In this document: positions 14,528-31,824 of the stretch, in pieces
Layout: every line of letters begins with the position of its first letter
Numbering within the stretch: the stretch's first letter is position 1
DNA from: Sphingobium yanoikuyae
GTDB lineage: Bacteria; Pseudomonadota; Alphaproteobacteria; Sphingomonadales; Sphingomonadaceae
Length of the DNA: 64,000 nt
Assembly: GCF_034424525.1 (NCBI RefSeq)
Contig: NZ_CP139979.1
Coordinates: forward strand, 2,065,501 to 2,129,500
Reading direction: 5' to 3'
Notes under the pieces: model-generated
Databases searched by the model: none
What the model was told of the DNA's origin: nothing
The model's input: the letters and a program-made list of their open reading frames with translations, nothing else
Position numbers and translations under genes: made by a program

Positions 14528-15913
14528 TCAGAACGCCTTGTGATGAACGAGCACGTTGAAGGTCCGCAGCAGGATGCCGATATCCCGCGCGAGGCTCCAG
14601 CCGTGCAGATATTCCAGATCCGCCTCGATCCGCCGCAAGATGTCGCCGCGTGTTTCCGTCGCGCCACGGAAACCCCTGATTTGGGCCAGTCCCGTGATGC
14701 CGGGCTTGAGCGCGTGGCGATGCCAATATTGCCGATCGACCTGCCAGAAATAGGCGTTGTCAGCGGTCGAGCCCAAGGCGTGCGGCCGCGGCCCGACGAG
14801 GCTCATTTCGCCGAGCAGAACATTGAATAGCTGGGGCAGTTCGTCGATGCTCGTACTGCGAATGAAGCGCCCGATGCGGGTCACACGGTCATCACTTCGA
14901 CCGGTGGAACGGCTACCCAACGCGTCGCCGCAATCGGTCCGCATGCTGCGGAACTTATAGATCCGGAACAAGCGGTTGCCGCGACCGATGCGTTGTTGGC
15001 GAAAGAAGACCGGCCCTGTGCTGTCGATCTTGATGGCGATCGCCACCAGAAGCAGCAACGGCAGCAGCGCAATGACCAGGGGCACGGTCAAGGCAATGTC
15101 GAGCAAGCGCTTGCGCGCGCGGTCAGCAAGGTTGAGCGGGCCGCGCGAGACCACCAGGGTCGACGTGTCCAGCCAAGTCCCTACCGCAAGCGGTGCAGTC
15201 TCCCCGACCTCAGGCACGACGACTTCGCCCTGGACATTGCTGCCCTTCAATATCTCGGCCCAACTCGCCCGTCGGGCAGCCGGGCAAAGGATGATCGCTC
15301 TGTCATAATCACGCAGCAGCACACCCAATTGGTGCAGCTTGTGCGGATCATCCTCTTCGGGGCGCAGCCCGATCTGGCGCGCATCGATCACGGCTGCCGC
15401 ACCGCAATCATTGGGGCGCGCGATACCATCAAGGATCAATATCTCCGCGAACAGCTGATTTCCGAAGCAACGCCGGACCGCATAGGCCATCAGTGAGCGC
15501 TGCACGACCAGCAGCCCCAGGCTGCCAAAGACGCCGAACAATATGCCTGAGCGCAGGAAGGTCCCCACCGCCTTCGATGCGAAAATTACAAGGAAGAACA
15601 GCAGCATGGTGGCACCAAATGCCAATGTCGCAGCGCGACAGCTGATCGTCGCGCTAGTCAGACAGGACACACTGTAAGCCTGGCTGTGAAAGGCGATGAT
15701 CGCAAAGACGAGAATGCCTGCGGATAATGATCCGATCATGTCCGACGAGGATGCCGGCGAGAGGCGTGCGCCTACGCCAAAGCCAATCAGCAGCGCCAAG
15801 CAATCAGCTGATAGCAACAGCAGGCACAACCACAGGCGTGCATTGCGCCTGGCGATTAACGCCCCCGTTCCGCTCGCGCTGTGGAAACGCGCCGCCAAAT
15901 CCGGATTTGCCAT
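14528..15913 (-). CDS. Exopolysaccharide priming glycosyl-1-phosphate transferase (GumD/WcaJ/SpsB-like PHPT)
   Basis: A 461-residue polyisoprenyl-phosphate hexose-1-phosphate transferase that starts EPS repeat-unit synthesis on undecaprenyl phosphate at the inner membrane. About four N-terminal hydrophobic helices (30-140) precede a Rossmann-like cytosolic region, a re-entrant helix (about 270-295) and the catalytic domain. That domain carries [52 protein letters not shown] and [12 protein letters not shown]. The Glc-1-P specificity of GumD-type enzymes is likely but inferred. Transcribed alone leftward from an AT-rich divergent region; an AAGGA precedes the ATG. Confidence 0.92.
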
Positions 15914-16454: not shown

Positions 16455-17081
16455 TCATCCGTCCAGCCTCCGGCCTATTCCCGCCGCAAATGCAACTCTC
16501 AGGGCATCCGAAAGATTGCGCGTCTTGAGCTTTGCCATCAGGTTTGCGCGATGAATTTCGATCGTGCGCGGGCTGATGCCCAATTGCAGGGCGATGTGCT
16601 TGTTCGGCAGCCCCATTGTCAGGCCTGCCAGCACATCCCGCTCGCGCGGCGTCAACTTTTCCACCAGCGATTGCGCCTGCGCGACCCTTTGCCGGCGCGC
16701 ACCATTATCATATAGCACCGACCAGGCGTTCTCGACCGCCTGCAGCAGGCTCTGCCGCTCGAACGGCTTCACCAGGAAATCCACGGCACCCATCTTCATT
16801 GCCGCGACCGTCACGGCAATGTCGCCATGCCCTGTCAGCATGATGACCGGAAAATTGAGATCCGCTTCATTGAGCCGGCGCTGCACCTCCAGCCCATCCA
16901 TGTCGGGCATGCGCAGGTCCAGGATCACACAGCCCGGCGGCTCGGTCGGCGCGGCGGCGAGGAAATGAGCGCCCCTCTGCCAAGTGCGGACCGAATATCC
17001 TTCAAGCTCCAACAAGAATGCCGTTGCCGCTCTGACGGAATATTCGTCGTCCACGATGTGAATCGTCTTCATTTCCTCCAC
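16455..17081 (-). CDS. fixJ: Response regulator, FixJ/NarL type (REC + LuxR-type HTH)
   Basis: A 208-residue DNA-binding response regulator. The receiver domain (1-125) has the acidic pair in IVDDE, phospho-acceptor Asp in VILDLRMPDMDG, Thr in MLTGHGD and Lys in FLVKPF. The linker leads to a LuxR-family HTH (about 140-200) with LTPRERDVLAGLTMGLPNKHIA and GISPRTIEIHRANLM, as in FixJ. It overlaps the 3' end of the sensor kinase gene by 80 bp on the same strand, so the two form one coupled operon. Its place inside the EPS locus suggests control of EPS or microaerobic genes, but targets are unknown. Confidence 0.9.
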   Translation of the reverse strand: MEEMKTIHIVDDEYSVRAATAFLLELEGYSVRTWQRGAHFLAAAPTEPPGCVILDLRMPDMDGLEVQRRLNEADLNFPVIMLTGHGDIAVTVAAMKMGAVDFLVKPFERQSLLQAVENAWSVLYDNGARRQRVAQAQSLVEKLTPRERDVLAGLTMGLPNKHIALQLGISPRTIEIHRANLMAKLKTRNLSDALRVAFAAGIGRRLDG

Positions 17082-18993
17082 AAAGAATCCCCTTCTTACG
17101 CTTCAATGTGAAACAAAAGCAGCTGCCGGCAGGCGCGGGCTCAACCCAGATCCGCCCGCCATGGGCCTCCACAATTGTTCGACAAATGGACAATCCGACC
17201 CCAGTTCCCTCTTCCTTGGTCGTGACAAAGGCGTCGAACAGCCGCTCGCGGATTTCCGCGGCAATGCCCGAGCCGGTGTCGGTAATCATGACTTGGGTGG
17301 TAAGCTCATCGACGCGGGACGCCTGGATCGTCAGTATCCGCTCATCCATGTTGCGCATCGCATCTATGGCATTGCGACAAAGATTGCCGATCACCTGCTG
17401 GATCTGGACCGGATCGGCGAATACCGGCCCCGCGTCCGGCGCAACCCGAAGCACGACGCGGACTTGCGCACGGGCAGCTGCGGGGCGGACGAGCGCAATG
17501 CTGCTGCGCACCATTTCGCCGATATCCTGCACCTCCAGTTGCGCTTCGCCACTACTGGTGAAATCGCGCAAATGGCGCATGATCGCCCCCGCCCGCACCG
17601 CTTCGCTCGACGCGAGATGGAAAATTTCGTCCAGCTTCGCTCGGCTCCCGCCGTTGAGATTGTTGAGCAGGATGCTGCCCCCCTCCATATAGGCTGCAAG
17701 CGCTGTCAATGGCTGGGTCAACTCGTGCGACAGCATCGACGCCATCGCGCCCATTGCGCTATAGCGGGTGCCATCCAGCATTTCCGCCTGCAGGGTTTCC
17801 AGCCGAGCCTTCGTCGCCTCCTGTTCGGAAAGGTCGCGCACAAAGGCCGTAAACCTTGTGCCGCCGTTCGCTTCCATCCGCACGAAGGTCATCTCGGTTG
17901 GAAAATTCGAGCCATTATGATGCCGGCCGATCAACTGCCGCTCGATCTTTTCCGAAACATCGACGATCCGGAATGGATATTCGTCAGGCACTTCGTCTTC
18001 AGAAGGACAGACCAGCAGCAGGCTCTCGAAATTCTGGCCTTTGAGGTCCACAAGATCATAGCCGAACATGCGGGAGGCCGCTTCGTTGATATATTCGATG
18101 CAGCCGTCGGCATCGAATACGAAGACGGCGTCCGGCGCGGTCTCCAATATCAGCCGCAACTCATGCTCCCGCTCCTGCAGCGCAAGCTCATGCGCGCGCT
18201 CCAGCGTGACGTCGCGGATCAGGTTGGCAAAGCCCTGCAACGCTCCGTCATTGTCGTACAATGCCGTGACAACGCAATTCTGCAGATAGATAGTGCCATC
18301 GCTGCGGCAGCATTCATGATCGAATTCCCAGCTGCCATGCTGCCGGGCGAAGGCGAAGGCCTGCGCCATGCGCGCCTTGATCTCCGCCCGCCCTGGGTAG
18401 AGCAGCGCGACATGGCGATGCATCACCTCGCCGGTCAACCAGCCGGTAAAGCGCTCGGCACCGCGATTCCAATGCAGGATGAACCCTGAAACATCGGTCA
18501 TGTAGAGGGCATAATGCGCCGCGCCGTCGGTCAGCAGCTTCATCTGCGTCATCAGCCGGCCGACATGGGCAGCCTGATATTCCGCTCTGGCGCGCCAGAA
18601 TGTCGCGCGAAGCGCAACGACGTTGGCGGCAACCAGCGCCATGAGGAAGGCGCCCGCCGCAAGCAGCCCGCCATGAAAGCCTTCAAGCAGATAAGTGACC
18701 GCCAAGGCGGCGATACCAGCCAGAAAGCCCGGTCCGGCGCCGAACAGCATCGTCGTAAACAATGCAACGAATGTGAATATCACATAAAATTCGCTGGAGA
18801 AGGACGGATATTCATCGGCCTGAAAAGCGGCGAGCGCGATCGCGACCATGGCCAACCCGACCAGATAGCGACTGACCCCGCTCCACGAGACGTGTCGTCT
18901 GAGGCATCGCAGCCTGACCAGCGAAAAGCTGGCGCGGACTTGGCCCGCCTTGGAGATCGGCATGATGTTAAATCGTCTGACGGCTGCGAACAT
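17002..18993 (-). CDS. FixL-like sensor histidine kinase (membrane, two PAS domains, no heme His)
   Basis: A 663-residue kinase with about four transmembrane helices (40-130), PAS1 (about 150-265), PAS2 (about 280-395), a HisKA domain with SMLSHELTQPL (His423) and a HATPase domain with NLCRNAIDAM, DTGSGIAAEIRERLF and GVGLSICRTIVEAHGG. Similarity to FixL extends from PAS2 through the kinase core. In FixL the heme-ligating His precedes D-x-Y in PAS2; here the equivalent stretch is VPDEYP with Pro336, so heme-based O2 sensing is unlikely. The frame runs 80 bp into the response regulator gene, giving an unusual tail after FTLKRKKG. The ATG at 18963 is an alternative start. Confidence 0.9.
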   Translation of the reverse strand: MFAAVRRFNIMPISKAGQVRASFSLVRLRCLRRHVSWSGVSRYLVGLAMVAIALAAFQADEYPSFSSEFYVIFTFVALFTTMLFGAGPGFLAGIAALAVTYLLEGFHGGLLAAGAFLMALVAANVVALRATFWRARAEYQAAHVGRLMTQMKLLTDGAAHYALYMTDVSGFILHWNRGAERFTGWLTGEVMHRHVALLYPGRAEIKARMAQAFAFARQHGSWEFDHECCRSDGTIYLQNCVVTALYDNDGALQGFANLIRDVTLERAHELALQEREHELRLILETAPDAVFVFDADGCIEYINEAASRMFGYDLVDLKGQNFESLLLVCPSEDEVPDEYPFRIVDVSEKIERQLIGRHHNGSNFPTEMTFVRMEANGGTRFTAFVRDLSEQEATKARLETLQAEMLDGTRYSAMGAMASMLSHELTQPLTALAAYMEGGSILLNNLNGGSRAKLDEIFHLASSEAVRAGAIMRHLRDFTSSGEAQLEVQDIGEMVRSSIALVRPAAARAQVRVVLRVAPDAGPVFADPVQIQQVIGNLCRNAIDAMRNMDERILTIQASRVDELTTQVMITDTGSGIAAEIRERLFDAFVTTKEEGTGVGLSICRTIVEAHGGRIWVEPAPAGSCFCFTLKRKKGILCGGNEDDSHRGRRIFRQSGNGILVGA

Positions 18994-19284: not shown

Positions 19285-20754
19285 TTAACTGGTGGAGGAC
19301 ACGCGTTTGCCCCCTGCCCGTGCGAAATGGAACATGTCGATGACAATGGTCCGTCCGACCAGTCCGAGGACGACCATATAGACCGCTGCCCCAGCGATGA
19401 CCGTCGACAACAGCATCGGAATCGGCGCTTGGCCGGCCAATGCGAACCGGAACCCCCATAGAAAAACAGCCATGACCAGCGATGCGACGACACTGGGCCG
19501 CAGCGCCTTCCAATAATCCCGCCATCCCAGCGGCAGCAGAACCACAACTGGCCAGACGGACAGGGGATAGAGGATATAGGCGCGCGCCGTGAACGCGGCA
19601 GCGACCGCAGCCATCCCATATTCAACGGCAAAGAAGAAGGTGACAATATTGACCAGCGCATAAATGCCCGCCAGCCAAGTCTGCCATTGCGGCTTCCCCA
19701 TGGCGAGCATCAGCGACTGATTGTAAATGCCGATCGCCTGGAGCGCGCCGAACAGGCTGAGGTAGCGCATAACATCCGCTGCCGCCGCCCAACGCGGACC
19801 GAACAACAGGAAAATGAACTCGTCCGATACGATCGCCAGGCCGACAAAGGCCGGGGTCGTTATGGACGATGTCGCCGACACTATTCTGAGGAAAGCCTTT
19901 GCAAGGCGGGGCGGATCCCCCTTGAGTTGCGAGAAGACCGGAAGTGCCACACGGGACAGCGCACGTGCCAGCATCAGATTGGCGGCCAGCAAAGCCCGCT
20001 TGCCGACGGTATAAATGCCTGTCGCTGCGCCGCCGAGCGCCAGGCCGATGACCATGATGTCAGCATTGGCGTTGAAGAAATTCGCAGCGCCCGTCACGCC
20101 GACATGACGGCCATAGAAAAGCACGTCCCTTGCCTTTTCCCGTGAAAAACGCAGTCGGGGTCGCATCGGGCAGGCGGCCCACAGGATTATCGTTCCGATG
20201 ACGGCTACGGCCAGATTCTGTGCCACCAGCGCCATCACGCCATAACCGGCCACCGCCAGTGCTATTCCGACGATGCCGCCGACCAGGGTCGAGATTGTCG
20301 AGCGCGTGGCCAATGGCCGCATCAGCAAGGCCCGCGTCAGCCAAGCCTGTGGCACGACGTTCAGCGCACCAAGGAAATTCGCGACACTGAGCCATCGCAA
20401 AACCATGCCCAAGCCCTGATGGGCGGCGGTCCGCTCGACCCAGTCGGCTAGCAAGAAGGTTGCAATCAGCAGCAGAGCGCCGGCCGCAGCAGAAATCCAG
20501 AAGGCCGTGTCATCCAAGTCGGCATCGGCAGCGCCGCCCTTGCTCACAAGCGATGCACTGATCCCCGACAATATGATCATCTGGAACCATTGCCCTACCA
20601 GCAGGGCCATGGCGACGATGCCCAGCATCGTCGCATCGACATAGCGCGCAATCACGAGGAAGGTCAGGAACTGCAACAGTTGCACACCCCAACTTTCCAG
20701 GATGGACCAGGCCATGCCTGAACGGACTGCGCGCCCCAACGCCGGACCTGACAT
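19285..20754 (-). CDS. Polysaccharide repeat-unit flippase (Wzx/GumJ-like)
   Basis: A 489-residue integral membrane protein with about 12-14 hydrophobic helices and the N-terminal WSILESWGVQLLQFLTFLVIARYVD segment, typical of the polysaccharide synthesis/MOP flippase family. It would translocate the lipid-linked EPS repeat unit across the inner membrane. The gene lies 12 bp downstream of the acyltransferase on the same strand, so the two are probably co-transcribed. The 290-bp stretch between its stop and the sensor kinase start holds no gene; it is AT-rich at 19130-19260 and probably carries the kinase promoter. Confidence 0.88.
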   Translation of the reverse strand: MSGPALGRAVRSGMAWSILESWGVQLLQFLTFLVIARYVDATMLGIVAMALLVGQWFQMIILSGISASLVSKGGAADADLDDTAFWISAAAGALLLIATFLLADWVERTAAHQGLGMVLRWLSVANFLGALNVVPQAWLTRALLMRPLATRSTISTLVGGIVGIALAVAGYGVMALVAQNLAVAVIGTIILWAACPMRPRLRFSREKARDVLFYGRHVGVTGAANFFNANADIMVIGLALGGAATGIYTVGKRALLAANLMLARALSRVALPVFSQLKGDPPRLAKAFLRIVSATSSITTPAFVGLAIVSDEFIFLLFGPRWAAAADVMRYLSLFGALQAIGIYNQSLMLAMGKPQWQTWLAGIYALVNIVTFFFAVEYGMAAVAAAFTARAYILYPLSVWPVVVLLPLGWRDYWKALRPSVVASLVMAVFLWGFRFALAGQAPIPMLLSTVIAGAAVYMVVLGLVGRTIVIDMFHFARAGGKRVSSTS

Positions 20755-23428: not shown

Positions 23429-24466
23429 ATGAGCGCCCCTCAGCGCCCGAGACGGACGGTCCTTGCGATCCGATGTGCTGCCCTCCTCTCGACGGCATGC
23501 CCTTGGATGGCCTGCGCGGCGCCACCGTTGTCGGGAATCAACCTCGCGGGCGGTGAGTTCAACTCGGGCAGGAAGCCGGGTATTTTCGGGAAGGATTATA
23601 TCTACCCCGATACCCGCACCGCGGCGCCCTTCGTCGCGATGGGCATGAAGATCGTCCGGGTTCCGATATTGTGGGAGCGGATCCAACCCGTCCCGCTCCA
23701 GCCCCTCTCGACCGCCGAGCAGGCCCGCCTCGACAAGGTCGTGGCGACCCTGGCGCCGTTCCGGGTCATCATCCTCGACATCCACAATTATGGCGCAAAC
23801 GGGGGGCAGCGACTGGATCAATCGCCAGATGGCAGCGCGAAACTCGCCGATCTCTGGCGCCGATTGGCCGAGCATTATCGCGGGAACAGGCAGGTGGCCT
23901 TCGGCCTGATGAATGAACCGAACGGCATGGCACCGACACGCTGGCGATCGATGGTGGACGAAAGCGTCGTCGCCATTCGAAAGACAGGCGCGCGCAACAT
24001 GCTGTTCGTGCCAGGCTCCAACTGGACCGGCGCGCATAGCTGGACCGCCGGCGGCCGCACCTCCAACGCTGCCGCCTTCCAGAATTTCCACGATCCAGCC
24101 GGCAATTATGCGATCGAGATGCACCAATATCTGGACTCGGACAGTTCCGGGATGAAGGCGCAATGCGAAGCGCCGCCGGTCATCCAACACCGCATGGAAG
24201 CGGCGACGAAATGGCTTCGGGACAACCGCCACAAGGGCTTCCTTGGCGAGTTCGGCGCCCCTGCAAATGCCGCCTGCCTCGACAGCCTGGACGCTCTGCT
24301 CAAGCATCTCGATGCCAATGCCGATGTCTGGATGGGTTGGGCCTATTGGGCCGGCGGCCCATGGTGGGGCGCAAGCTATCCCATGAGCCTGCAACCCGTG
24401 CAAGGCAAAGCCCGGCCACAGGCAGCCATTGTTGCAAAATACAGCCAGACGGGAGCCGCAAGATGA
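23429..24466 (+). CDS. Secreted glycoside hydrolase family 5 (cellulase-like)
   Basis: A 345-residue secreted endoglycanase. Signal peptide (about 1-31, ending CACAA), then a GH5 TIM barrel: GINLAGGEF, KIVRVPILWERI, ILDIHNYG, the acid/base Glu163 in FGLMNEPNG, and the nucleophile Glu274 in GFLGEFGAP followed by WAYWAGGPWWG. GH5 enzymes retain anomeric configuration and usually cut beta-1,4-glucans. As the first gene of the rightward EPS operon, it is likely to trim or release a polymer with a beta-1,4-glucan backbone. Its stop overlaps the next start (ATGA). Confidence 0.92.
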   Translation: MSAPQRPRRTVLAIRCAALLSTACPWMACAAPPLSGINLAGGEFNSGRKPGIFGKDYIYPDTRTAAPFVAMGMKIVRVPILWERIQPVPLQPLSTAEQARLDKVVATLAPFRVIILDIHNYGANGGQRLDQSPDGSAKLADLWRRLAEHYRGNRQVAFGLMNEPNGMAPTRWRSMVDESVVAIRKTGARNMLFVPGSNWTGAHSWTAGGRTSNAAAFQNFHDPAGNYAIEMHQYLDSDSSGMKAQCEAPPVIQHRMEAATKWLRDNRHKGFLGEFGAPANAACLDSLDALLKHLDANADVWMGWAYWAGGPWWGASYPMSLQPVQGKARPQAAIVAKYSQTGAAR

Positions 24467-25662
24467 CCCGCCTGCATTATGCGCGCCTTCCCCTTGCCTG
24501 CTCGATCGTCTTGGGCTGCCCAGCCTTTGCGCAGGTCGAAGTGCCGCCTGACGGCCTGACCGTGGCACCCACGGTGCGGATGCTCTACGACGACAATGTC
24601 CTGCGCCAGAGCGATGATCTCGTCTCCGGTGACAAGGACGATCTACGTGTCACCCCGGCGCTCGATGCCACCTTCAGGAAAAATCTCGGTGTCCACCAGG
24701 TCACGGTCGTGGGATCGTTGGGCTATGACTTCCATCAGCGCTACAGCAATCTCGATCGGGAGCGCGTTACGCTCACCGCCAAGGGCGATGTAAAGGTCAG
24801 CGCACTCTGCTATCTGCGTCCAAGCGCACGCCTGAATTTCGCACAGGCCGATCTGGCCGACCAAGGCATGATCGTCGGCAACAGTGAGCGCACCCAGGAC
24901 TATGCGGTCACGGCCGAGTGCGACAAGCCCTATGGTTACTATCCCGTCATCAAACTCGGCTATCTGCAAACGAACAATAGCGTCGATTCACGCCGGCCGT
25001 TCGACATCCGCACCCGCAGCGCGGGCATTGGTATCGCCTATAGCAAGGCAAGCCTTGGCGACATTCGACTGATGTTCAACGTCGAAGCTTTCCGCCGCCC
25101 CCACTGGTCAGACGAAACGTCCGAACTGCGCATGAGCCGCGGTGCCGACAATTATCGGGTTGGGATCGAGTTCAAACGCGCTGTCGCGCCGCGTCTCAGT
25201 TGGAGTGCCGGAATTGGCTATATTCATACCAAAGCGCGTGATGAACGGGTCGATGACTATTCGGGCCTGGGCTATCACGCAGGTGCCGTCTACCGGCCAT
25301 CGCCGCGCACCTCCCTGACATTCGACGGCAGCCGCAGCACCAGCAACCAGAGCAACACCGGTGCGACCTATATCGTCCTGACCAATTTTTCGCTGCGCGG
25401 CAATGCGACCCTCAGTTCACGATCTTCGATCCAGGCTGGCGCGAGCTATGCCAGGCGCCAGTTCAAGGGCGAGCTGTTGATCGACACCGACATGATGCGC
25501 GGTACCGACGAAACGACCGCACTCAACGCCGGATATCGATTTGCACTGCGCAGCCGCCTGACGGCCGGCGTCGACGTTCGCCACGAATGGCGAGAAAGCG
25601 CAGTCGAGCGCTACCGATATAAATCGACATCGATGATGCTGTCCCTTGGCCTTACATTGTGA
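24463..25662 (+). CDS. Outer-membrane beta-barrel protein of the EPS operon (BBP2-like)
   Basis: A 399-residue protein with a signal peptide (cleavage after PAFAQ) and a barrel of alternating amphipathic strands, ending LSLGLTL. The mature N-terminus VEVPPDGLTVAPTVRMLYDDNVLR is typical of the putative beta-barrel porin 2 group found in EPS loci (EpsL-like). It may form part of the outer-membrane exit path or a secretion accessory with the Wza-like protein. Start at 24463 chosen because of the ATGA overlap with the GH5 gene and the signal peptide; the open frame extends further upstream without support. Confidence 0.8.
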   Translation: MTRLHYARLPLACSIVLGCPAFAQVEVPPDGLTVAPTVRMLYDDNVLRQSDDLVSGDKDDLRVTPALDATFRKNLGVHQVTVVGSLGYDFHQRYSNLDRERVTLTAKGDVKVSALCYLRPSARLNFAQADLADQGMIVGNSERTQDYAVTAECDKPYGYYPVIKLGYLQTNNSVDSRRPFDIRTRSAGIGIAYSKASLGDIRLMFNVEAFRRPHWSDETSELRMSRGADNYRVGIEFKRAVAPRLSWSAGIGYIHTKARDERVDDYSGLGYHAGAVYRPSPRTSLTFDGSRSTSNQSNTGATYIVLTNFSLRGNATLSSRSSIQAGASYARRQFKGELLIDTDMMRGTDETTALNAGYRFALRSRLTAGVDVRHEWRESAVERYRYKSTSMMLSLGLTL

Positions 25663-25673
25663 GGAGCATGGCC

Positions 25674-26468
25674 ATGTTCTTACCCCGTGCGATGCGAAAC
25701 CTGTGCAGTTCCCTTCTTCTGGCCACGCTCGCCAATCCCGTATTGGCCGGCGTCGACAACAAGGAAGCTGTCGCTGCCTATGTCCTGGGTGCCAATGACG
25801 AGATTCGCGTCTCGATATTCGGCGCCTATCCGATCGAAGTCAAAACGCGGATCAAGGAAGATGGGCGCATCACCCTGCCGAGCATCGGCGACGTGGTCGC
25901 GGAGGGATCCACGACCAACGCCCTTGCAAACAATATCCGCCGGCAATTGCAGACGGGCGGATATTTCGTCGATCCGATCGTCAATGTCGAAGTCGTGAGC
26001 TTCGTCAGTCGATCGGTCACGATGTTCGGCAACCTCCAGAACCCTGGGCTCTACCCCCTGGATCGACCTCAGACGATCGCGATGATGCTGGCGCGCACCG
26101 GCGGCGCCCGCGCGGACGCGGCGGACTATGCGATCCTGCAACGAACGGGAGAAGCGGATCGGCGGATTGCCCTCAGCGATCTCGACCCGCAAAGCGGGAC
26201 CGGTCAGTTCCTGCGCGCAGGCGATTCCATCTTCGTGCCGAAGGCCGAGGAGGTATTCATCTACGGCCAGGTGAACAAGCCCGGCCGCGTCGCCTTCGAA
26301 ACCGGCATGACCCTGCGCCAGATGCTGGCCCAGGCCGGCGGGCCGACTTTGGGCGGATCGGAAAAGAAGATCACGCTGCACCGCGGCACGGAGATCATCA
26401 AGAAGGCCAGCCTCGATATGCTGGTCAAGCCTGGTGACGTCTACACCGTCAACGAGCGGACCTTCTGA
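25674..26468 (+). CDS. Polysaccharide export protein, Wza/GumB-like
   Basis: About 264 residues. Signal peptide (FLPRAMRNLCSSLLLATLANPVLAG), then a Poly_export domain (YVLGANDEIRVSIFGAYPI, GRITLPSIGDVVAEGST) and two SLBB domains (VTMFGNLQNPGLYPL, VFIYGQVNKPGRV). It forms the periplasmic/outer-membrane translocon through which the polymer leaves the cell. No lipobox Cys is evident, unlike E. coli Wza. Starts are possible at a GTG (25659, overlapping the previous stop), ATG 25668 and ATG 25674; GAGGAG at 25661-25666 is best spaced for 25674. Confidence 0.92.
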   Translation: MFLPRAMRNLCSSLLLATLANPVLAGVDNKEAVAAYVLGANDEIRVSIFGAYPIEVKTRIKEDGRITLPSIGDVVAEGSTTNALANNIRRQLQTGGYFVDPIVNVEVVSFVSRSVTMFGNLQNPGLYPLDRPQTIAMMLARTGGARADAADYAILQRTGEADRRIALSDLDPQSGTGQFLRAGDSIFVPKAEEVFIYGQVNKPGRVAFETGMTLRQMLAQAGGPTLGGSEKKITLHRGTEIIKKASLDMLVKPGDVYTVNERTF

Positions 26469-26501
26469 GATGCGATCCGGTATCCTGACAGGAGGCATTG
26501 C

Positions 26502-27806
26502 GTGAATATCTTCACCAGAATTGCCCGTTGGCTCCGACGAACGCCCGAGCCCGAGCGGCGCCGAGAAGCGCCTGGCCGGCGTTCCCGAGCAACGGGCAGC
26601 GTGCCTGAAAATGCGCAATCGGCCGGCGCTGCATCCGTCACGCCGTCTACCAATGCAGCCATGTCCGCTGACGCTGTCCGATCAGCGATACGCAAGGGGT
26701 TCAATGCCACCCAGCCCGTCACGGCCGCCCGCCATCTTCATGGCCGGCAGCAGGAGATGGACCTGCTGGTGGAGGGGGTGCTTGATCGCGGCAATCATGC
26801 GATGATCTTTGGCGGCCGAGGCACAGGCAAGACCTCGCTGGCGCGCGTGTTCGCCAATGTTGCCGACAATCGCGGCTATCTGGTCTTCTACATGGCCTGC
26901 GAGCCCGGGCAGGATTTTACCAGCTTGATCTCACCGTTCCTCGATGCCGCCCGCGGAAACCTGCCGCGCTCACCCACGACAGATACGCCGATCGTCGTTG
27001 GACCGCGCGATGTCGTGGAAGCACTCGCCGAACATGGGCAGCGAAAATTCATCTTCATCCTCGACGAGTTCGACCGCATCACCGATCCGGCTGTTCTCGG
27101 CGAATTGTCGCGCACCATGAAGCTGCTCTCCGACGCGGCCCTGCCGGTTCATATTCTGGCGGTCGGCATCGCGTCCGGATTGAGCCAGCTCATCGAAGGC
27201 CATGAATCCCTGCGGCGGCACATGACCGCCGTTCCCATCGTGCGGATCGACACGGCCGCCGTGTTCGACCTGATCGACCGCGGCGCCGCCCAGGCCGGCC
27301 TCAACTTCAGCGATGCCGCGCGCGAGACAATTGCCCATGTCGCATGCGGCTCCCCCTATCATGTCCGCCTGTTCTGCGCGCTGGCCTGCCTGGAAACCCT
27401 CAGGCAGCGCAAGACGATCGTCGAAATGCCGGCAACGCTCGCGGGAATGATGCGCGCGGTCGACGACTGGACGATCACCAATCCGACAGATGCTGCGCTG
27501 TTCCATGAAGCCATCGATCTGGGCGCCGGCCATTGGCCAATGATTGAACAGGTCGTCCGCGCCGCGATCGTTCCTCCCGGCCTCGCGCCGGAACAGCAGG
27601 CGCCGCATATCGACCGCTACGCTCCGGTCCTGGATATCCTGCGCCGCGCCATGCACGCCCGGCCGGGCAGCACTGCCCTCATGTTCCGGGACAGCCTCGC
27701 CCCCCAGTTCCTGCTCGGCATGTTGTCTGCCAGCCGCCACGGCGACCACCTGACCCGGCGTGTCGTCAGCCTTGTAGAAGGGCAGCGCCAAAGCGCTGCA
27801 TCGTAA
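26502..27806 (+). CDS. AAA ATPase embedded between wza and wzc
   Basis: A 434-residue P-loop ATPase. The N-terminal 75 residues are basic and low-complexity. The core has Walker A GGRGTGKTS (104-112), Walker B FIFILDEFD (183-191), a following LGELSRTMKLLSD helix and a winged-helix-like C-terminal half with SPYHVRLFCALAC. It resembles the ExeA/Orc1-type AAA fold. No transmembrane segment is seen. Xanthan- and sphingan-type EPS loci do not normally include such a gene. Its neighbour two genes down is a BY-kinase homologue without a P-loop, so it might provide ATPase or chaperone activity to the assembly complex; this is inference. Confidence 0.82.
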   Translation: MNIFTRIARWLRRTPEPERRREAPGRRSRATGSVPENAQSAGAASVTPSTNAAMSADAVRSAIRKGFNATQPVTAARHLHGRQQEMDLLVEGVLDRGNHAMIFGGRGTGKTSLARVFANVADNRGYLVFYMACEPGQDFTSLISPFLDAARGNLPRSPTTDTPIVVGPRDVVEALAEHGQRKFIFILDEFDRITDPAVLGELSRTMKLLSDAALPVHILAVGIASGLSQLIEGHESLRRHMTAVPIVRIDTAAVFDLIDRGAAQAGLNFSDAARETIAHVACGSPYHVRLFCALACLETLRQRKTIVEMPATLAGMMRAVDDWTITNPTDAALFHEAIDLGAGHWPMIEQVVRAAIVPPGLAPEQQAPHIDRYAPVLDILRRAMHARPGSTALMFRDSLAPQFLLGMLSASRHGDHLTRRVVSLVEGQRQSAAS

Positions 27807-27818
27807 GGGACCGATAGG

Positions 27819-29186
27819 ATGTACATGTTCGACATAACGCGAGCCATCCTGCAGCGCTGGAGAATGGCAGCCGCCATCTTCTGCTGCGTCATGGCGCTGA
27901 CGGTCCTGTGGATTGCGATCACGCCGCGCGAATATCGCGCGACCGCCACTTTGCTGTTTGACAACCGCGCACCGGACCCGACCGGCGGCAAATCGAACGA
28001 GGCGACCGGCGAATCCATGCTCGCGACGGAGTCCAGAATCCTGCAGAGCGAGGTGATCGCCCGCAAGGTGGCCGAGCGGCTTGGCCTGTTCAGGAATCCG
28101 GCCATGCGCGCCCGCTGGCAGGAGCAGACGAACGGCAACCAGAGTTTCGAAGGCTGGATCAGCCGCAGCGTCCAGTCGGGTTTGCAGGTTTCGCCCAGCG
28201 CCACCGGCAATACGATCGACGTCTCCTACCGCAGCCTGGATCCACAGCGTTCGGCGTTGATGGCCAACAGCTTCGCCCAGGCCTTCAATGATGCGCGCCT
28301 GGGCATCAGCAACGAATTCGCCCAGCGCTTTGCGGCCTGGTACAAGAAACAGATCGCCGCGTCCGAACAGCGCATGGAAGAGGCGCAGGCACGGCTCGCC
28401 GATTTCCAGCGCGCGCACGGTATTGTCGCCACTGGCGCCATCGATGCCGAAAGCACGCGCCTCAGCGAATTGTCGTCGAAACTGTCGTCGGCCGAAGCCG
28501 TTGCTGCGGAGGCCCGGTCGCGCGCGGCGGGGGGCGCCAATATGCCCGACATTCAATCGAGCGGGGTGATCCAGGGGCTAAGGGCTCAGATCGCGGCCAA
28601 ATCGGCGGAAATCAGCCAGATGGCTGCCGAACTCGGCCCCAATCATGCGACGATGCGTGCCGCCCAGCAGCAGTTGCGCCAGATGCAGGACAGTCTGGCC
28701 CAGGAAACCGGCAAGATGTCGGGCACGCTGGCGGCGGCCAGTTCGGCGGCATCGGCCAATCAGGGCACGATGCAGGCCCTGCTCGACCAGCATCGCGGAC
28801 GCATGCTGTCGCTCGCGGCCGATCGCGGAAAGCTCGCCGTGCTGGAAAGCAATGTGGAATCGGCGCGCAAGGAATATGAGGCGCAGACCGAACAATTCTC
28901 GCAGTTGCATGCCACCAGCACGGCCCCGTCACTCAATATCGTGCGGCTCGACATCGCAGAACCGCCGATGATCCCCAACGCGCCCAATATCGGCGTGCGG
29001 TTCCTGATGATGACGATGGTGGCCCTCATGCTCGCAATCGGCTCGGTCATCCTCGCCGAATGGCTCAGCCCGCGCGTCCGCAGTCGTAACACCGTCACCT
29101 ATCTTACCGGCGTGCCGTTGCTTGGTCAGGCAGACCTGCGCGTCAACGGCAAGCAACTCCGTATCGAAGGAGGCAATTGGTCATGA
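27819..29186 (+). CDS. Wzc/GumC-like polysaccharide co-polymerase (Wzz domain)
   Basis: A 455-residue inner-membrane chain-length/export protein. It has TM1 at about residues 15-35, then the Wzz motif region YRATATLLFDNRAP, a long periplasmic coiled-coil region (about 165-350, rich in Gln/Ala/Glu, e.g. EQRMEEAQARLADFQ), the Pro-rich segment AEPPMIPNAPNIG and TM2 (about 393-413). It ends shortly after, without a cytosolic kinase domain, so the kinase module is split off into the next gene, as in SpsC/SpsE or CapA/CapB systems. Overlaps the next gene by 4 bp. Confidence 0.9.
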   Translation: MYMFDITRAILQRWRMAAAIFCCVMALTVLWIAITPREYRATATLLFDNRAPDPTGGKSNEATGESMLATESRILQSEVIARKVAERLGLFRNPAMRARWQEQTNGNQSFEGWISRSVQSGLQVSPSATGNTIDVSYRSLDPQRSALMANSFAQAFNDARLGISNEFAQRFAAWYKKQIAASEQRMEEAQARLADFQRAHGIVATGAIDAESTRLSELSSKLSSAEAVAAEARSRAAGGANMPDIQSSGVIQGLRAQIAAKSAEISQMAAELGPNHATMRAAQQQLRQMQDSLAQETGKMSGTLAAASSAASANQGTMQALLDQHRGRMLSLAADRGKLAVLESNVESARKEYEAQTEQFSQLHATSTAPSLNIVRLDIAEPPMIPNAPNIGVRFLMMTMVALMLAIGSVILAEWLSPRVRSRNTVTYLTGVPLLGQADLRVNGKQLRIEGGNWS

Positions 29187-29893
29187 GGCTTCGCTCGACT
29201 GAACCGGTAGAGGATGTCTATCCCGGCCTGCCGCCGACTTACGATGGCGATCCGGGCGAGGAGACGGCGGCGGTCCACGCCAATGTCGATCCCGCAATCG
29301 CGGTGATCCACGCCCCCAGCGCAATGCTGGCGGAACAAGCGCGGGACATCCAGTCGACCCTGTCTGCAATGCGCCATCCCGACGGTCGCGCGCCCGGCTC
29401 TATCGCGGTCATCGCAATCGAGGCGAGCGAGCAGGCGGCAATATTGACCGCGAATATCGCGGTCTCGGCAGCCCTGAGCGGTCTGCGCACCTTGATCGTC
29501 GACATGGAGCATTCCGGCTTCGTTCAACATCGCCTGCTTGGCATGAATGCACGAACCGGCTCGCCGGACGACATGGATGAGCCATTTCAGCTGGTCCAGC
29601 CGAGCAGTATCCGTTCATTGTTCGTCATGGCCGCTCCCCAGCAGGATGGCTGCGCCATCGACGGCAGTCCGCTTGCGCCACTGTCGCAACGCCTGTCGTC
29701 GCTGACGGCTCACTTCGATCTGTGCCTGGTCGACGCCAGCCATATCGACGATCTCGCTCATGCGGCAGGCAGCGCCGATTGCGCGATCGTTGCGGTCCAG
29801 CGCGATCAGACATCGACCAGCGAGCTCAAGGCCGTGATCAACAAGATGACCATGCTGAACACGGTGCTGATCGGCACCATCATGCTGATCTAG
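29183..29893 (+). CDS. Degenerate BY-kinase/CpsD-like protein lacking the P-loop
   Basis: A 236-residue cytosolic partner of the Wzc-like protein. The arrangement matches CpsD/CapB P-loop tyrosine kinases: an EQARDIQSTLSAM helix, then beta-strand IAVIAIE, a helix NIAVSAALSG, RTLIVDMEH at the Walker A' position and FDLCLVDAS at Walker B. Where the family has a GxGKS/T Walker A, this protein has ASEQAA (about residues 81-86), and the A' Asp-Leu-Arg is changed to Met-Glu-His. There is no C-terminal Tyr cluster. It should therefore not bind ATP or autophosphorylate. Start ATG 29183 is favoured over TTG 29177 by AAGGAGG spacing. Confidence 0.78.
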   Translation: MRLRSTEPVEDVYPGLPPTYDGDPGEETAAVHANVDPAIAVIHAPSAMLAEQARDIQSTLSAMRHPDGRAPGSIAVIAIEASEQAAILTANIAVSAALSGLRTLIVDMEHSGFVQHRLLGMNARTGSPDDMDEPFQLVQPSSIRSLFVMAAPQQDGCAIDGSPLAPLSQRLSSLTAHFDLCLVDASHIDDLAHAAGSADCAIVAVQRDQTSTSELKAVINKMTMLNTVLIGTIMLI

Positions 29894-29928: not shown

Positions 29929-31824
29929 ATGAAAATCGCCCATATTTCCCGACAATATCATCCCGGACTCGGCGGGCTGGAAAGCTTCACCCGAAATCTG
30001 TGCCGCGAACAGGCTCGCGCCGGGCACCAGGTCAGGATGATCACCCTGGACCGCATCTTCGACGGCGACGACGCACCCTTGCCGCGATCCGAAATCATCG
30101 ACGATGTCGAGGTTGTCCGGATACCCTACCGGGGTGGACGTCGCTATCCGCTCGCACCATCCGTGCTGCACCATCTGGACGATTGCGACATCGTCCATGT
30201 CCACGCCGTCGATTTCTTCGCCGACTATCTGGCGCTGACCCGGCTGCTGCATCGCAAACCGCTGGTCCTGTCCACGCATGGCGGCTTCTTTCATACCGGC
30301 TATGCCCGTCGATTGAAGCAATTCTATTTTCACAGCATGACCCGTCTCTCACTGGCTGGATATCGGGCGATCATTGCCTGCAGCGAAGCGGACTATGAGA
30401 CGTTCGCCAAGGTCAATCGTCGCGCACTCACGCTGGTCGAAAATGGCGTGGACACGGTCAAGTTCGCCGGTCTTGCGCAATCGCCTTCCACCGAGCATCG
30501 CTTCATCTATTTCGGCCGGATCGCGCCGAACAAGCGGATCGACCTGTTGATCCGCTGGTTTGCGCATCTGCACCGGCTGGACCGGAAGGCCAGGCTGATC
30601 ATCGCGGGAAAGCCGATGGGTGTCACCTTCGCCGATCTGCAACAGATCGTCGAACAGCTCGGTTTGGGCGATCTGGTGGAATTTCATGACAGCCCCAGCG
30701 ACGAGGCGCTGCAGGCGCTGATTGCCCGTAGTACCATCTTCGCATCGCCGAGCGCCTATGAAGGTTTCGGTATTTCCCTGATCGAGGGGGTGTCCGCCGG
30801 GCTTTATCCAGTCGTCAGCGACATCCCGGCGCATCGCCGCTCCTGCGTCAAACTCGATACCGGCAGCCTGATCGATTTCGCCGATCCGCTGTCCGCTGCG
30901 CGCACCCTGCAGGACATTCGCAAGGCGCAGCAACGCTCACCCTCCCCCACCACTGCCGCAGGTCTGCTCGCTTATGGTTGGCCGGGCGTGAGCGCCAGGA
31001 TCTCGGCCATCTACGAACATATTCTGGGACGTCAGACCCGCCAGATCGGGCCGCTTCGCCTTGCCGTTCTTTCGGAGAGCGACGCGCTGAAAGCCGTTTC
31101 CGATCTGATCAGGGACCAGTCGCCGCGCGTGGTCGCATTCGGCAATGCCCATCTGATCAACCAGGCACGGCGGGTCGAGGGCGTCGCTGCCGCACTGAAC
31201 GACGCGCTGGTCCTTAATGACGGCGTCGGCGTCGATATCGCAAGCCGCCTCCGCTACGGGGACTCCTTCCCGCACAATCTGAACGGCACGGACTTCATTC
31301 CCCAGTTGCTGAAGAGCTACCCGGACCGCCTCCGGCTATTTCTGGTAGGCGCAGCCCCCGGCATCGCGGAACGTGCAGCCGCCATTCTGGAAGAGCGTCA
31401 TCCCCATATTCGCATAGTCGGCACCCTCCATGGCTTCTTCGACCCGCAAGAGGAGGAGCATCTGAGCCGCCATATTCGGGAAAGCGGCGCGGATCTGGTA
31501 ATCGCAGCCATGGGGAACCCCCGCCAGGAATTGTGGGCGGCCAAATGGGCATCCCATATCGGCCGCCCCATATTGTGCGCGGGCGCCCTGCTCGATTTCA
31601 CCGCCGGCCATGTCCCGCGCGCGCCTGGCTGGCTGCGCCGCATGCGCATGGAATGGATATTCCGGCTCATGAACGAACCGACCCGACTGGCAGACCGCTA
31701 TTTGCGCGGCAATGTCACCTTCCTCATGAATGCCATCCGTGACGCCAGGGGTGGCTACTCGGACGGGCCGATCCCGCCGCCATCGCCCCACTCCCACACT
31801 GTCCGCAACGCCGATGCCGCCTGA
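29929..31824 (+). CDS. Bifunctional glycosyltransferase: GT4 fused to GT26 (GumH-GumM-like)
   Basis: A 631-residue fusion. Residues 1 to about 365 form a GT-B, family 4 enzyme: HISRQYHPGLGGLESFTRNL, VLSTHGGFFHTGY, YFGRIAPNKRID and the E-x7-E motif in YEGFGISLIEG. Residues about 375-600 form a WecG/TagA/CpsF (GT26) domain: VAFGNAHLINQA, LNDGVGVDIASR, GTDFIPQLL, FLVGAAPG, AAMGNPRQELW and CAGALLDFTAG. In xanthan the GT26 (GumM) and GT4 (GumH) enzymes add the second and third sugars, so this protein may do both consecutive steps. ATG 29929 has AAGGGGG 7 bp upstream. Confidence 0.9.
   Translation: MKIAHISRQYHPGLGGLESFTRNLCREQARAGHQVRMITLDRIFDGDDAPLPRSEIIDDVEVVRIPYRGGRRYPLAPSVLHHLDDCDIVHVHAVDFFADYLALTRLLHRKPLVLSTHGGFFHTGYARRLKQFYFHSMTRLSLAGYRAIIACSEADYETFAKVNRRALTLVENGVDTVKFAGLAQSPSTEHRFIYFGRIAPNKRIDLLIRWFAHLHRLDRKARLIIAGKPMGVTFADLQQIVEQLGLGDLVEFHDSPSDEALQALIARSTIFASPSAYEGFGISLIEGVSAGLYPVVSDIPAHRRSCVKLDTGSLIDFADPLSAARTLQDIRKAQQRSPSPTTAAGLLAYGWPGVSARISAIYEHILGRQTRQIGPLRLAVLSESDALKAVSDLIRDQSPRVVAFGNAHLINQARRVEGVAAALNDALVLNDGVGVDIASRLRYGDSFPHNLNGTDFIPQLLKSYPDRLRLFLVGAAPGIAERAAAILEERHPHIRIVGTLHGFFDPQEEEHLSRHIRESGADLVIAAMGNPRQELWAAKWASHIGRPILCAGALLDFTAGHVPRAPGWLRRMRMEWIFRLMNEPTRLADRYLRGNVTFLMNAIRDARGGYSDGPIPPPSPHSHTVRNADAA

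What the first reader, a model, noticed from the sequence alone, without database searches (positions are those of the whole stretch)
26502..29893. AAA ATPase paired with a P-loop-less BY-kinase homologue inside an EPS export module
Seen: between wza-like and wzc-like genes there is a 434-residue AAA ATPase with intact Walker A/B. The wzc-like gene is followed by a CpsD/CapB-like protein in which GxGKS/T has become ASEQAA, the A' motif has become DMEH, and no Tyr cluster remains. Known: Wzc/CpsD-type BY-kinases use ATP-dependent autophosphorylation cycles to control EPS polymerisation. Inference: the kinase cycle has been lost and the AAA ATPase supplies the ATP-driven switch or remodelling step for the Wzc ring, a different control logic for Wzx/Wzy polysaccharide export.
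Basis: partly seen in the sequence, partly recalled or inferred. Interest (0 to 1): 0.72.

Follow-up and report, generated by a model that had tools for sequence, protein, structure and literature searches.

The report
ATPase-pseudokinase module for slime export
A set of five adjacent genes that helps sphingomonad bacteria make and export a slime polysaccharide carries a broken copy of the usual control kinase together with an intact ATPase of another kind; in a relative that ATPase is already known to be essential, so it may be what drives this version of the export machine.

Summary
Window 24463-29893 is one operon: EpsL-like barrel, EpsE/Wza-like, AAA, EpsF-like PCP-2, and a BY-kinase-fold protein without Walker A, A' or B motifs or Tyr tail. 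The order recurs in sphingomonads and is that of promonan genes prmC-prmG of Sphingomonas sp. LM7, where deleting the AAA gene (prmE) or the kinase-like gene (prmG) abolishes EPS (PMC11340318). That paper calls PrmG a bona fide kinase; its sequence, recovered here, has no P-loop. So PrmE is the only recognisable ATPase of that PCP/export core. BY pseudokinase/PCP-2 pairs are already published (EcpK/EpsV, HfsB/HfsA; PMC12004946), as is the need for the AAA in promonan; joining the two is what I add. Tied to the in-operon AAA is complete motif erosion (0 of 64 keep A' or Walker B; elsewhere 41 and 43 of 44), in one clade, hence one event. That the AAA drives the PCP/pseudokinase cycle is inference, about 0.4.

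The parts
24463..25662 (+). EpsL-like outer-membrane beta-barrel (PrmC-like position)
   Evidence: Pfam BBP2_2 67.9 bits; TIGR03014 EpsL 78 bits, below its cut-off 275
25659..26468 (+). EpsE/Wza-like polysaccharide export protein (Poly_export + SLBB)
   Evidence: Pfam Poly_export 63.3 bits, SLBB 58 bits; TIGR03028 148.5 bits, below its cut-off
26502..27806 (+). AAA ATPase, PrmE-type, intact Walker A and B, ORC1/CDC6-TnsC-like AAA+ fold
   Evidence: 34% identity over 367 columns to PrmE of strain LM7
27819..29186 (+). EpsF-like polysaccharide co-polymerase (PCP-2) without kinase domain
   Evidence: TIGR03017 286.6 bits; Pfam Wzz 23.2 bits, under its cut-off 25.5; 30% identity to PrmF
29183..29893 (+). 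BY pseudokinase (EpsG/CpsD fold, no Walker A, A', B, no Tyr tail), begins MRLRST
   Evidence: TIGR03029 31.1 bits, cut-off 313.8
29929..31824 (+). GT4 + WecG/TagA fusion glycosyltransferase directly downstream (PrmH position)
   Evidence: Pfam Glyco_tran_WecG 180.2 bits and Glycos_transf_1 90.5 bits
23429..24466 (+). GH5 cellulase-family glycoside hydrolase directly upstream
   Evidence: Pfam Cellulase 151.2 bits; a similar protein follows the AAA-pseudokinase pair in L065 (by eye)
19285..20754 (-). Wzx-type flippase
   Evidence: Pfam Polysacc_synt_3 192.6 bits
37217..38488 (+). probable Wzy-like polymerase, by position and hydrophobic look only
   Evidence: no Pfam hit at 0.1; inference
14528..15913 (-). 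initiating polyprenyl glycosylphosphotransferase (PrmA-like function)
   Evidence: TIGR03023 298.8 bits (cut-off 410.75), TIGR03025 286.9 bits (cut-off 295.55)

Best explanation
This is the inner-membrane and export core of a promonan-type Wzx/Wzy exopolysaccharide pathway. Shown: a kinase-less PCP-2 (EpsF/PrmF) is encoded with a BY-kinase-fold protein that has lost its nucleotide-binding motifs and has no Tyr tail, and with an intact AAA ATPase. [quoted passage not shown] Proposed, not shown: the AAA binds this PCP/pseudokinase assembly at the cytoplasmic face and uses ATP binding or hydrolysis to load, open or reset the ring, giving the nucleotide-driven step that autophosphorylation gives in Wzc systems.
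For: Same five-gene order in Sphingobium, Sphingomonas and Novosphingobium records and in unnamed relatives. Of 113 distinct EpsG-like proteins 0 have GK[ST] at the P-loop (3 have the letters elsewhere); of 107 homologues of PrmG found in the large protein set 0 have GK[ST] anywhere. Of the 120 AAA homologues listed (189 found) 120 keep Walker A and 120 Walker B. In the fetched loci 126 of 127 distinct AAA match Walker A (the exception is the 242-residue frame L187) and 119 of 127 a strict Walker B pattern; five of the other eight keep DE[F/Y]D after another residue, L184 has DEFN, L089 DEAD, L189 none found. Published genetics: deletion of prmE or prmG is EPS- in LM7 (PMC11340318, Table 4, section 9 read). 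LM7 identity of L219: its protein is 100% identical to P0121 'Sphingomonas sp. LM7', and contig length is 4155514 in both. Complete motif erosion goes with the AAA inside the operon: 64 such loci keep A' 0, Walker B 0; 44 others keep A' 41, Walker B 43. AAA and pseudokinase stay adjacent where no EpsF lies between them (L065 = L243, L157, L244). Low dN/dS.
Against: No interaction, ATPase activity or localisation was tested, and no complex was modelled. The in-operon AAA loci are one clade in the EpsF tree (64 rows, support 100), so the erosion/AAA link is one evolutionary event. EcpK/EpsV and HfsB/HfsA are published as working by scaffolding, with no AAA in that paper's text. EpsG-like proteins with no AAA in the fetched stretch also lack the P-loop lysine, so a pseudokinase need not have an AAA partner. 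The AAA fold is that of initiators, TnsC and clamp loaders as much as of remodellers. In the same genome a TIGR03015 ATPase lies beside an intact kinase, and L277 pairs an AAA homologue with an intact Walker A.
Confidence: 0.4

Rival explanations
1. Scaffold only: as proposed for EcpK and HfsB, the pseudokinase alone guides PCP assembly; the AAA is an assembly factor for the outer-membrane exporter (EpsE/EpsL) or another part, comparable to the XrtA/PEP-CTERM ATPase and ExeA, and does not act on the PCP ring.
For: Pseudokinase/PCP pairs without a reported AAA exist (PMC12004946), and here 10 distinct EpsF loci have no AAA in the fetched stretch (one of them, L141, comes from a genome with an AAA on another contig). 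PrmE's best NCBIfam match is the XrtA ATPase TIGR03015, 29 bits, far below cut-off 324.5. In many loci the AAA lies divergently next to EpsL. EpsE is the direct neighbour of the AAA in the window.
Against: In the three distinct loci where EpsF is not between them the AAA stays next to the pseudokinase. The window AAA shows no TIGR03015 match at E 0.1 and only a weak profile match to the own-genome TIGR03015 protein (probability 73.8). No peptidoglycan-binding domain was matched.
Confidence: 0.27
2. Regulatory switch: the AAA is a STAND/ORC-like nucleotide-dependent signalling switch that permits or blocks EPS production according to an unknown signal, with slow hydrolysis, rather than a mechanical driver.
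For: Pfam nSTAND1 54.7 bits for PrmE, over its cut-off 27.1, and 26.5, just under it, for the window AAA; ORC1/CDC6 fold.
Against: No sensor repeat domain was matched. The gene travels with the core export genes. Its deletion phenotype is complete loss (PMC11340318), which a switch could also give.
Confidence: 0.17
3. An intact BY-kinase encoded elsewhere phosphorylates or replaces the pseudokinase in trans.
For: Own genome has intact kinases: L001 and L002 with EGKS and a Tyr-rich end, L003 with GEGKS, L004 with GEGKT.
Against: Three are fused to PCP domains of their own and the fourth lies about 2 kb from a TIGR03015 ATPase. The pseudokinase has no Tyr tail to phosphorylate (0 of 64 in-operon loci with three or more Tyr in the last 30 residues). 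In LM7 prmG itself is essential (PMC11340318).
Confidence: 0.06

Closest known systems
Promonan (prm) cluster of Sphingomonas sp. LM7, PMC11340318
   Same: Gene order outer-membrane barrel, Wza, AAA, EpsF, CpsD/CapB-like, WecG-type GT. AAA 34% identical over 367 columns, PCP 30% over 442. AAA, PCP and kinase-like genes each essential for EPS in LM7 (published).
   Different: Different glycan genes: here a GT4-WecG fusion, GH5 and another glycosyltransferase set; LM7 has GH10, GH16 and GT2 genes. The paper treats PrmG as a bona fide kinase; its sequence here lacks a P-loop. The two pseudokinases are far apart (31.6 bits).
BY pseudokinase/PCP-2 pairs EcpK/EpsV (Myxococcus) and HfsB/HfsA (Caulobacter), PMC12004946
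   Same: Kinase-less PCP-2 with a stand-alone BY-kinase-fold partner lacking Walker motifs and Tyr tail.
   Different: No AAA partner is mentioned in that paper ('AAA' 0 occurrences in the main text); here an intact AAA is encoded between export protein and PCP. HfsB and EcpK sequences were not compared here.
EpsE/EpsF/EpsG/EpsL of XrtB/methanolan-type loci (TIGR03028, TIGR03017, TIGR03029, TIGR03014)
   Same: All four components have their best NCBIfam match there; the EpsG partners of four EpsF proteins over the TIGR03017 cut-off also lack the P-loop lysine (L167-L170).
   Different: All four window proteins score below the curated cut-offs; no AAA of this family was found within the about 20 kb fetched around those four loci.
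XrtA/PEP-CTERM ATPase TIGR03015
   Same: An AAA_22-like ATPase of exopolysaccharide-associated loci (family name; role recalled); distant match of PrmE, 29 bits.
   Different: No match of the window AAA at E 0.1; in the same genome the TIGR03015 protein lies beside a kinase with intact GEGKT (TIGR03018 198 bits, below cut-off 230.65).

Membership tests
Canonical BY-kinase (CpsD/CapB/Wzc) | Walker A GK[S/T], A' and Walker B motifs | tested here: not met
   EASEQAAIL, DMEHS, LVDAS
Canonical BY-kinase (CpsD/CapB/Wzc) | C-terminal Tyr-rich tail | tested here: not met
   C-terminus LNTVLIGTIMLI
BY pseudokinase + kinase-less PCP-2 (EcpK/EpsV, HfsB/HfsA) | BY-kinase fold without Walker motifs and Tyr tail | tested here: met
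BY pseudokinase + kinase-less PCP-2 (EcpK/EpsV, HfsB/HfsA) | PCP-2 partner without a kinase domain | tested here: met
   455 aa; TIGR03017 covers residues 13-437, no kinase family matched
BY pseudokinase + kinase-less PCP-2 (EcpK/EpsV, HfsB/HfsA) | Direct pseudokinase-PCP interaction, needed for function | not testable with these tools
   Published for EcpK/EpsV (PMC12004946); essentiality of PrmG published (PMC11340318)
Promonan-type (Prm) assembly module | Gene order OMP-Wza-AAA-EpsF-CpsD-like-WecG | tested here: met
Promonan-type (Prm) assembly module | AAA and EpsF in one clade with PrmE and PrmF | tested here: met
   In-operon EpsF: one clade of 64 rows, support 100. AAA: clade of 67 rows, support 100. 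Both hold the window and L219 = LM7; quick trees
XrtB/methanolan EpsEFG equivalogs | Scores above the curated NCBIfam cut-offs | tested here: not met
   148.5 of 262.65; 286.6 of 422.75; 31.1 of 313.8; EpsL 78 of 275
XrtB/methanolan EpsEFG equivalogs | XrtB exosortase and PEP-CTERM proteins | not tested
   no search was made for an exosortase
XrtA/PEP-CTERM ATPase TIGR03015 | Score above the curated cut-off 324.5 bits | tested here: not met
   No match at E 0.1 for the window AAA; PrmE 29 bits
AAA+ ATPase | Walker A, Walker B, AAA domain score above gathering cut-off | tested here: met
   AAA_16 33.1 (32.6), AAA_22 31.9 (27.0); K110, D188, E189 invariant in 68 aligned sequences

The most novel reading that the evidence does not exclude
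A third way to power a Wzx/Wzy co-polymerase: beside a BY-kinase that has lost its catalytic site, an AAA+ ATPase of the ORC/TnsC fold class became the nucleotide-driven engine that loads, opens or resets the PCP-2/pseudokinase ring, so that chain growth is timed by AAA turnover instead of tyrosine phosphorylation.
Probability: 0.33. Interest if true: 0.82.

Novelty: new variant of a known kind. Interest (0 to 1): 0.6.

Why it matters
How PCP-2 rings without kinase activity cycle between assembly states is an open question raised in PMC12004946. PMC11340318 left an essential ATPase, PrmE, without a role, while taking PrmG for a working kinase. Reading both together makes one testable case: a genetically tractable freshwater strain in which the only recognisable ATPase of the PCP/export core is the AAA. 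If it drives the ring, polymer length could be tuned through that enzyme. If not, the strain still separates scaffolding from nucleotide-driven cycling.

Tried and rejected
AAA as compensation for kinase loss, in the strict form: rejected. All 10 distinct EpsF loci with no AAA in the fetched stretch also lack GK[ST], some with GDGRS or GDGTS P-loops (GEGRS in P0224-P0227). AAA absence was judged on stretches of at most about 20 kb: L141's genome has an AAA on another contig, and L165 and L172 lie near contig ends. What remains is a link between the in-operon AAA and loss of the other motifs.

Amphipathic membrane helix at the AAA N-terminus: strong in the window (IFTRIARWLRR; 0 and 1 of 100 shuffles as high in its two rows), but over the 85 rows of A1 and A3 only 20% reach shuffle p 0.1, so not claimed for the family.

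AAA as an XrtA ATPase: rejected by score; a distant tie remains possible.

Scattered AAA homologues: 12 of the 50 order-wide matches had no EpsF/EpsG gene in the fetched stretch (my tally; one of the 38 others, L157, has only the pseudokinase). Five of the 12 (L058, L182, L184, L188, L189) group in the AAA tree with homologues from other phyla; L187, a 242-residue frame, is not in the tree; six (L052, L174, L177, L179, L180, L181) fall inside the sphingomonad clade. Of these L174, and L056 from the set, were checked by Pfam (10 proteins in all) and sit among Wzy, glycosyltransferase or transporter genes; the other five were only read by eye. Loci from other phyla and L082 (L082-L090, L092-L103) showed no EpsE/F/G/L-type gene by my HMMs in the DNA held. 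Outside the order, 3 of the 288 genomes of the class sample other than G000 had a match (the sample also holds a few same-family genomes): L277 beside a fused PCP-kinase with intact EGKT, L276 near Wzx- and GT-like genes on a 7 kb contig (by eye), L278 unlinked.

Rows dropped before the table: 167 loci scanned, 120 with an adjacent EpsF-EpsG pair; 12 dropped as repeats of the same EpsF; 9 with EpsF or EpsG but no pair by my rule (L065, L078, L157, L158, L162, L171, L224, L243, L244; L162 and L224 because of over-long frames). In L173 one of two pairs was used. L080 was relabelled in-operon by hand. The 3 in-operon 'GxS/T remnants' (L062, L238, L251) are chance strings. In one search the label noEps also covers loci whose pair my rule missed.

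Limits: loci were mostly chosen by AAA searches, so AAA-free EpsF/EpsG operons are few. The EpsG detector was seeded on pseudokinases. Trees are quick ones with open forks. Fused Wzc kinases of other genomes were not fetched, apart from L171 and L277. Literature: in the held library searches showed me no paper linking the AAA to a pseudokinase; listings were capped. Cuthbertson's analysis is known only as cited in PMC12004946. PMC12004946: outline, abstract and passages seen. PMC11340318: passages and section 9. PMC5399355 and PMC1569441: passages only.
Full report

Is it a module. In the relatives' sample 21 of 61 genomes match the AAA at E 0.001. I fetched 24 loci; 17 of them and the window keep the order EpsL-EpsE-AAA-EpsF-EpsG, four (window, L035-L037) in the window's version and 14 (L038-L051) in a second version that also occurs in this genome (L038). 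In all 18 the kinase-like protein lacks the P-loop. The other seven loci hold distant AAA homologues; two of them have EpsL-E-F-G some kb away with GASY and GTSY in place of GKS/T. Records named Sphingobium, Sphingomonas and Novosphingobium show the same order. In other sphingomonads the AAA is divergently transcribed next to EpsL-E-F-G or lies some kb away. The order-wide search found the AAA in 45 of 396 genomes, the genus-wide one in 68 of 250 genomes of G400's genus, with 74 matches, of which I fetched 38 more loci; all 38 have an EpsG-like protein and none of these has GK[ST] at the P-loop. Outside the order it is rare. dN/dS of 0.03 to 0.39 indicates that AAA, PCP and pseudokinase are all maintained.

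If the AAA had replaced the kinase, EpsF/EpsG operons without AAA should have working kinases. They do not: 0 of 113 distinct EpsG-like proteins have GK[ST] at the P-loop. The 10 distinct loci with no AAA in the fetched stretch include four whose EpsF scores above the TIGR03017 cut-off, with P-loop stretches DPEDGAAL, RPRDGRSF, NAGDGTSL and NPTGGASL. Loss of the lysine is thus general in the stand-alone EpsG type sampled. What does go with the AAA is the depth of erosion. Where the AAA lies between EpsE and EpsF (64 distinct EpsF loci), A' is left in 0, Walker B in 0, a GxS/T string in 3 (chance strings by inspection), and 54 have the MRLRS-like start. In the 44 other loci (26 with AAA on the opposite strand, 8 same strand elsewhere, 10 without) the counts are A' 41, Walker B 43, GxS/T 43, MRLRS-like start 0. 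These 64 are one clade in the EpsF tree (support 100), placed beside the four EpsF rows over the cut-off, which come from outside the class (support 89), so this is one event. The AAA tree gives the corresponding clade, 67 rows, support 100, which also holds the loci where AAA and pseudokinase are neighbours without EpsF between them.

Link to published work. The order is that of prmC-prmD-prmE-prmF-prmG-prmH of Sphingomonas sp. LM7 (PMC11340318, section 9 read). There deletion of prmE (AAA), prmF and prmG each gives an EPS- phenotype. The authors describe prmE as an ATPase not previously associated with polysaccharide assembly and prmG as a bona fide BYK (passages). I could recover this locus: L219 encodes a protein 100% identical to one named for LM7, on a contig of the same length, 4,155,514 bases. 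PrmG there reads LAVLSLQGGDEASILAANL, with no GK[ST], no DxP Walker B and no Tyr tail. So the kinase reading of PrmG is not supported by its sequence, and PrmE is the only recognisable ATPase of the PCP/export core. Separately, PMC12004946 (abstract and passages seen) presents BY pseudokinase/PCP-2 pairs (EcpK/EpsV, and HfsB/HfsA from earlier work) as a phosphorylation-independent subfamily and asks how a pseudokinase can stimulate a PCP; AAA does not occur in its text. I saw no paper that joins the two lines in searches.

How it most likely works. Shown: gene content, motifs, predicted folds, conservation. Published: essentiality in LM7. Inferred: the pseudokinase caps the cytoplasmic end of EpsF as a scaffold, by analogy with EcpK/EpsV. 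Proposed: the AAA acts on this assembly with ATP. Support: the AAA's intact catalytic motifs (120 of the 120 listed homologues; in the fetched loci 126 of 127 Walker A and 119 of 127 strict Walker B), its essentiality, and its adjacency to the pseudokinase in three distinct loci without EpsF between them (L065 = L243, L157, L244). In G366, source of L157, an EpsF-like gene lies about 28 kb away. Against: no interaction data, a single evolutionary event, pseudokinase systems without a known AAA, and an AAA homologue beside a fused kinase with intact Walker A in L277. The own genome also holds a TIGR03015 ATPase about 2 kb from a kinase with intact GEGKT, so an ATPase near such genes need not mean a dead kinase.

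Verdict. New variant of a known kind, interest 0.6.

Noticed in passing
own genome G000:C1:1637386-1640833 (L038): A second, diverged copy of the same EpsL-EpsE-AAA-EpsF-pseudokinase operon in the same chromosome; its pseudokinase is longer (301 aa).
   Followed up: partly
own genome G000:C1:1423655-1426789 (L004, L259, L263): A kinase frame with SGEGKT (TIGR03018 198 bits, below cut-off) and a TIGR03015 ATPase over its cut-off, about 2 kb apart: a natural comparison to the window operon.
   Followed up: partly
window 29183-29200 and homologues: The pseudokinase N-terminus MRLRS[T/S] is conserved between otherwise diverged versions (54 of 64 in-operon loci; 98 of 107 homologues start so) and was seen in 0 of the 44 other loci; its role is unknown.
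   Followed up: no
L174 and L056: Members of the same AAA clade sit in other polysaccharide loci with Wzy_C, glycosyltransferase or hexapeptide-transferase and transporter genes instead of EpsE/F/G.
   Followed up: partly
P0224-P0227, L168, L171: EpsG-like proteins with a P-loop lysine-to-arginine change (GEGRS/GDGRS), a possible intermediate of kinase loss.
   Followed up: no
window 16455-18993 (-): A PAS-domain-like histidine kinase and a response regulator (FixL/FixJ-like, by eye) between the initiating transferase and the flippase, possible regulators of the cluster.
   Followed up: no
L173 (G676, same class, other family): Two tandem EpsF-pseudokinase pairs followed by an AAA of this family.
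   Followed up: no
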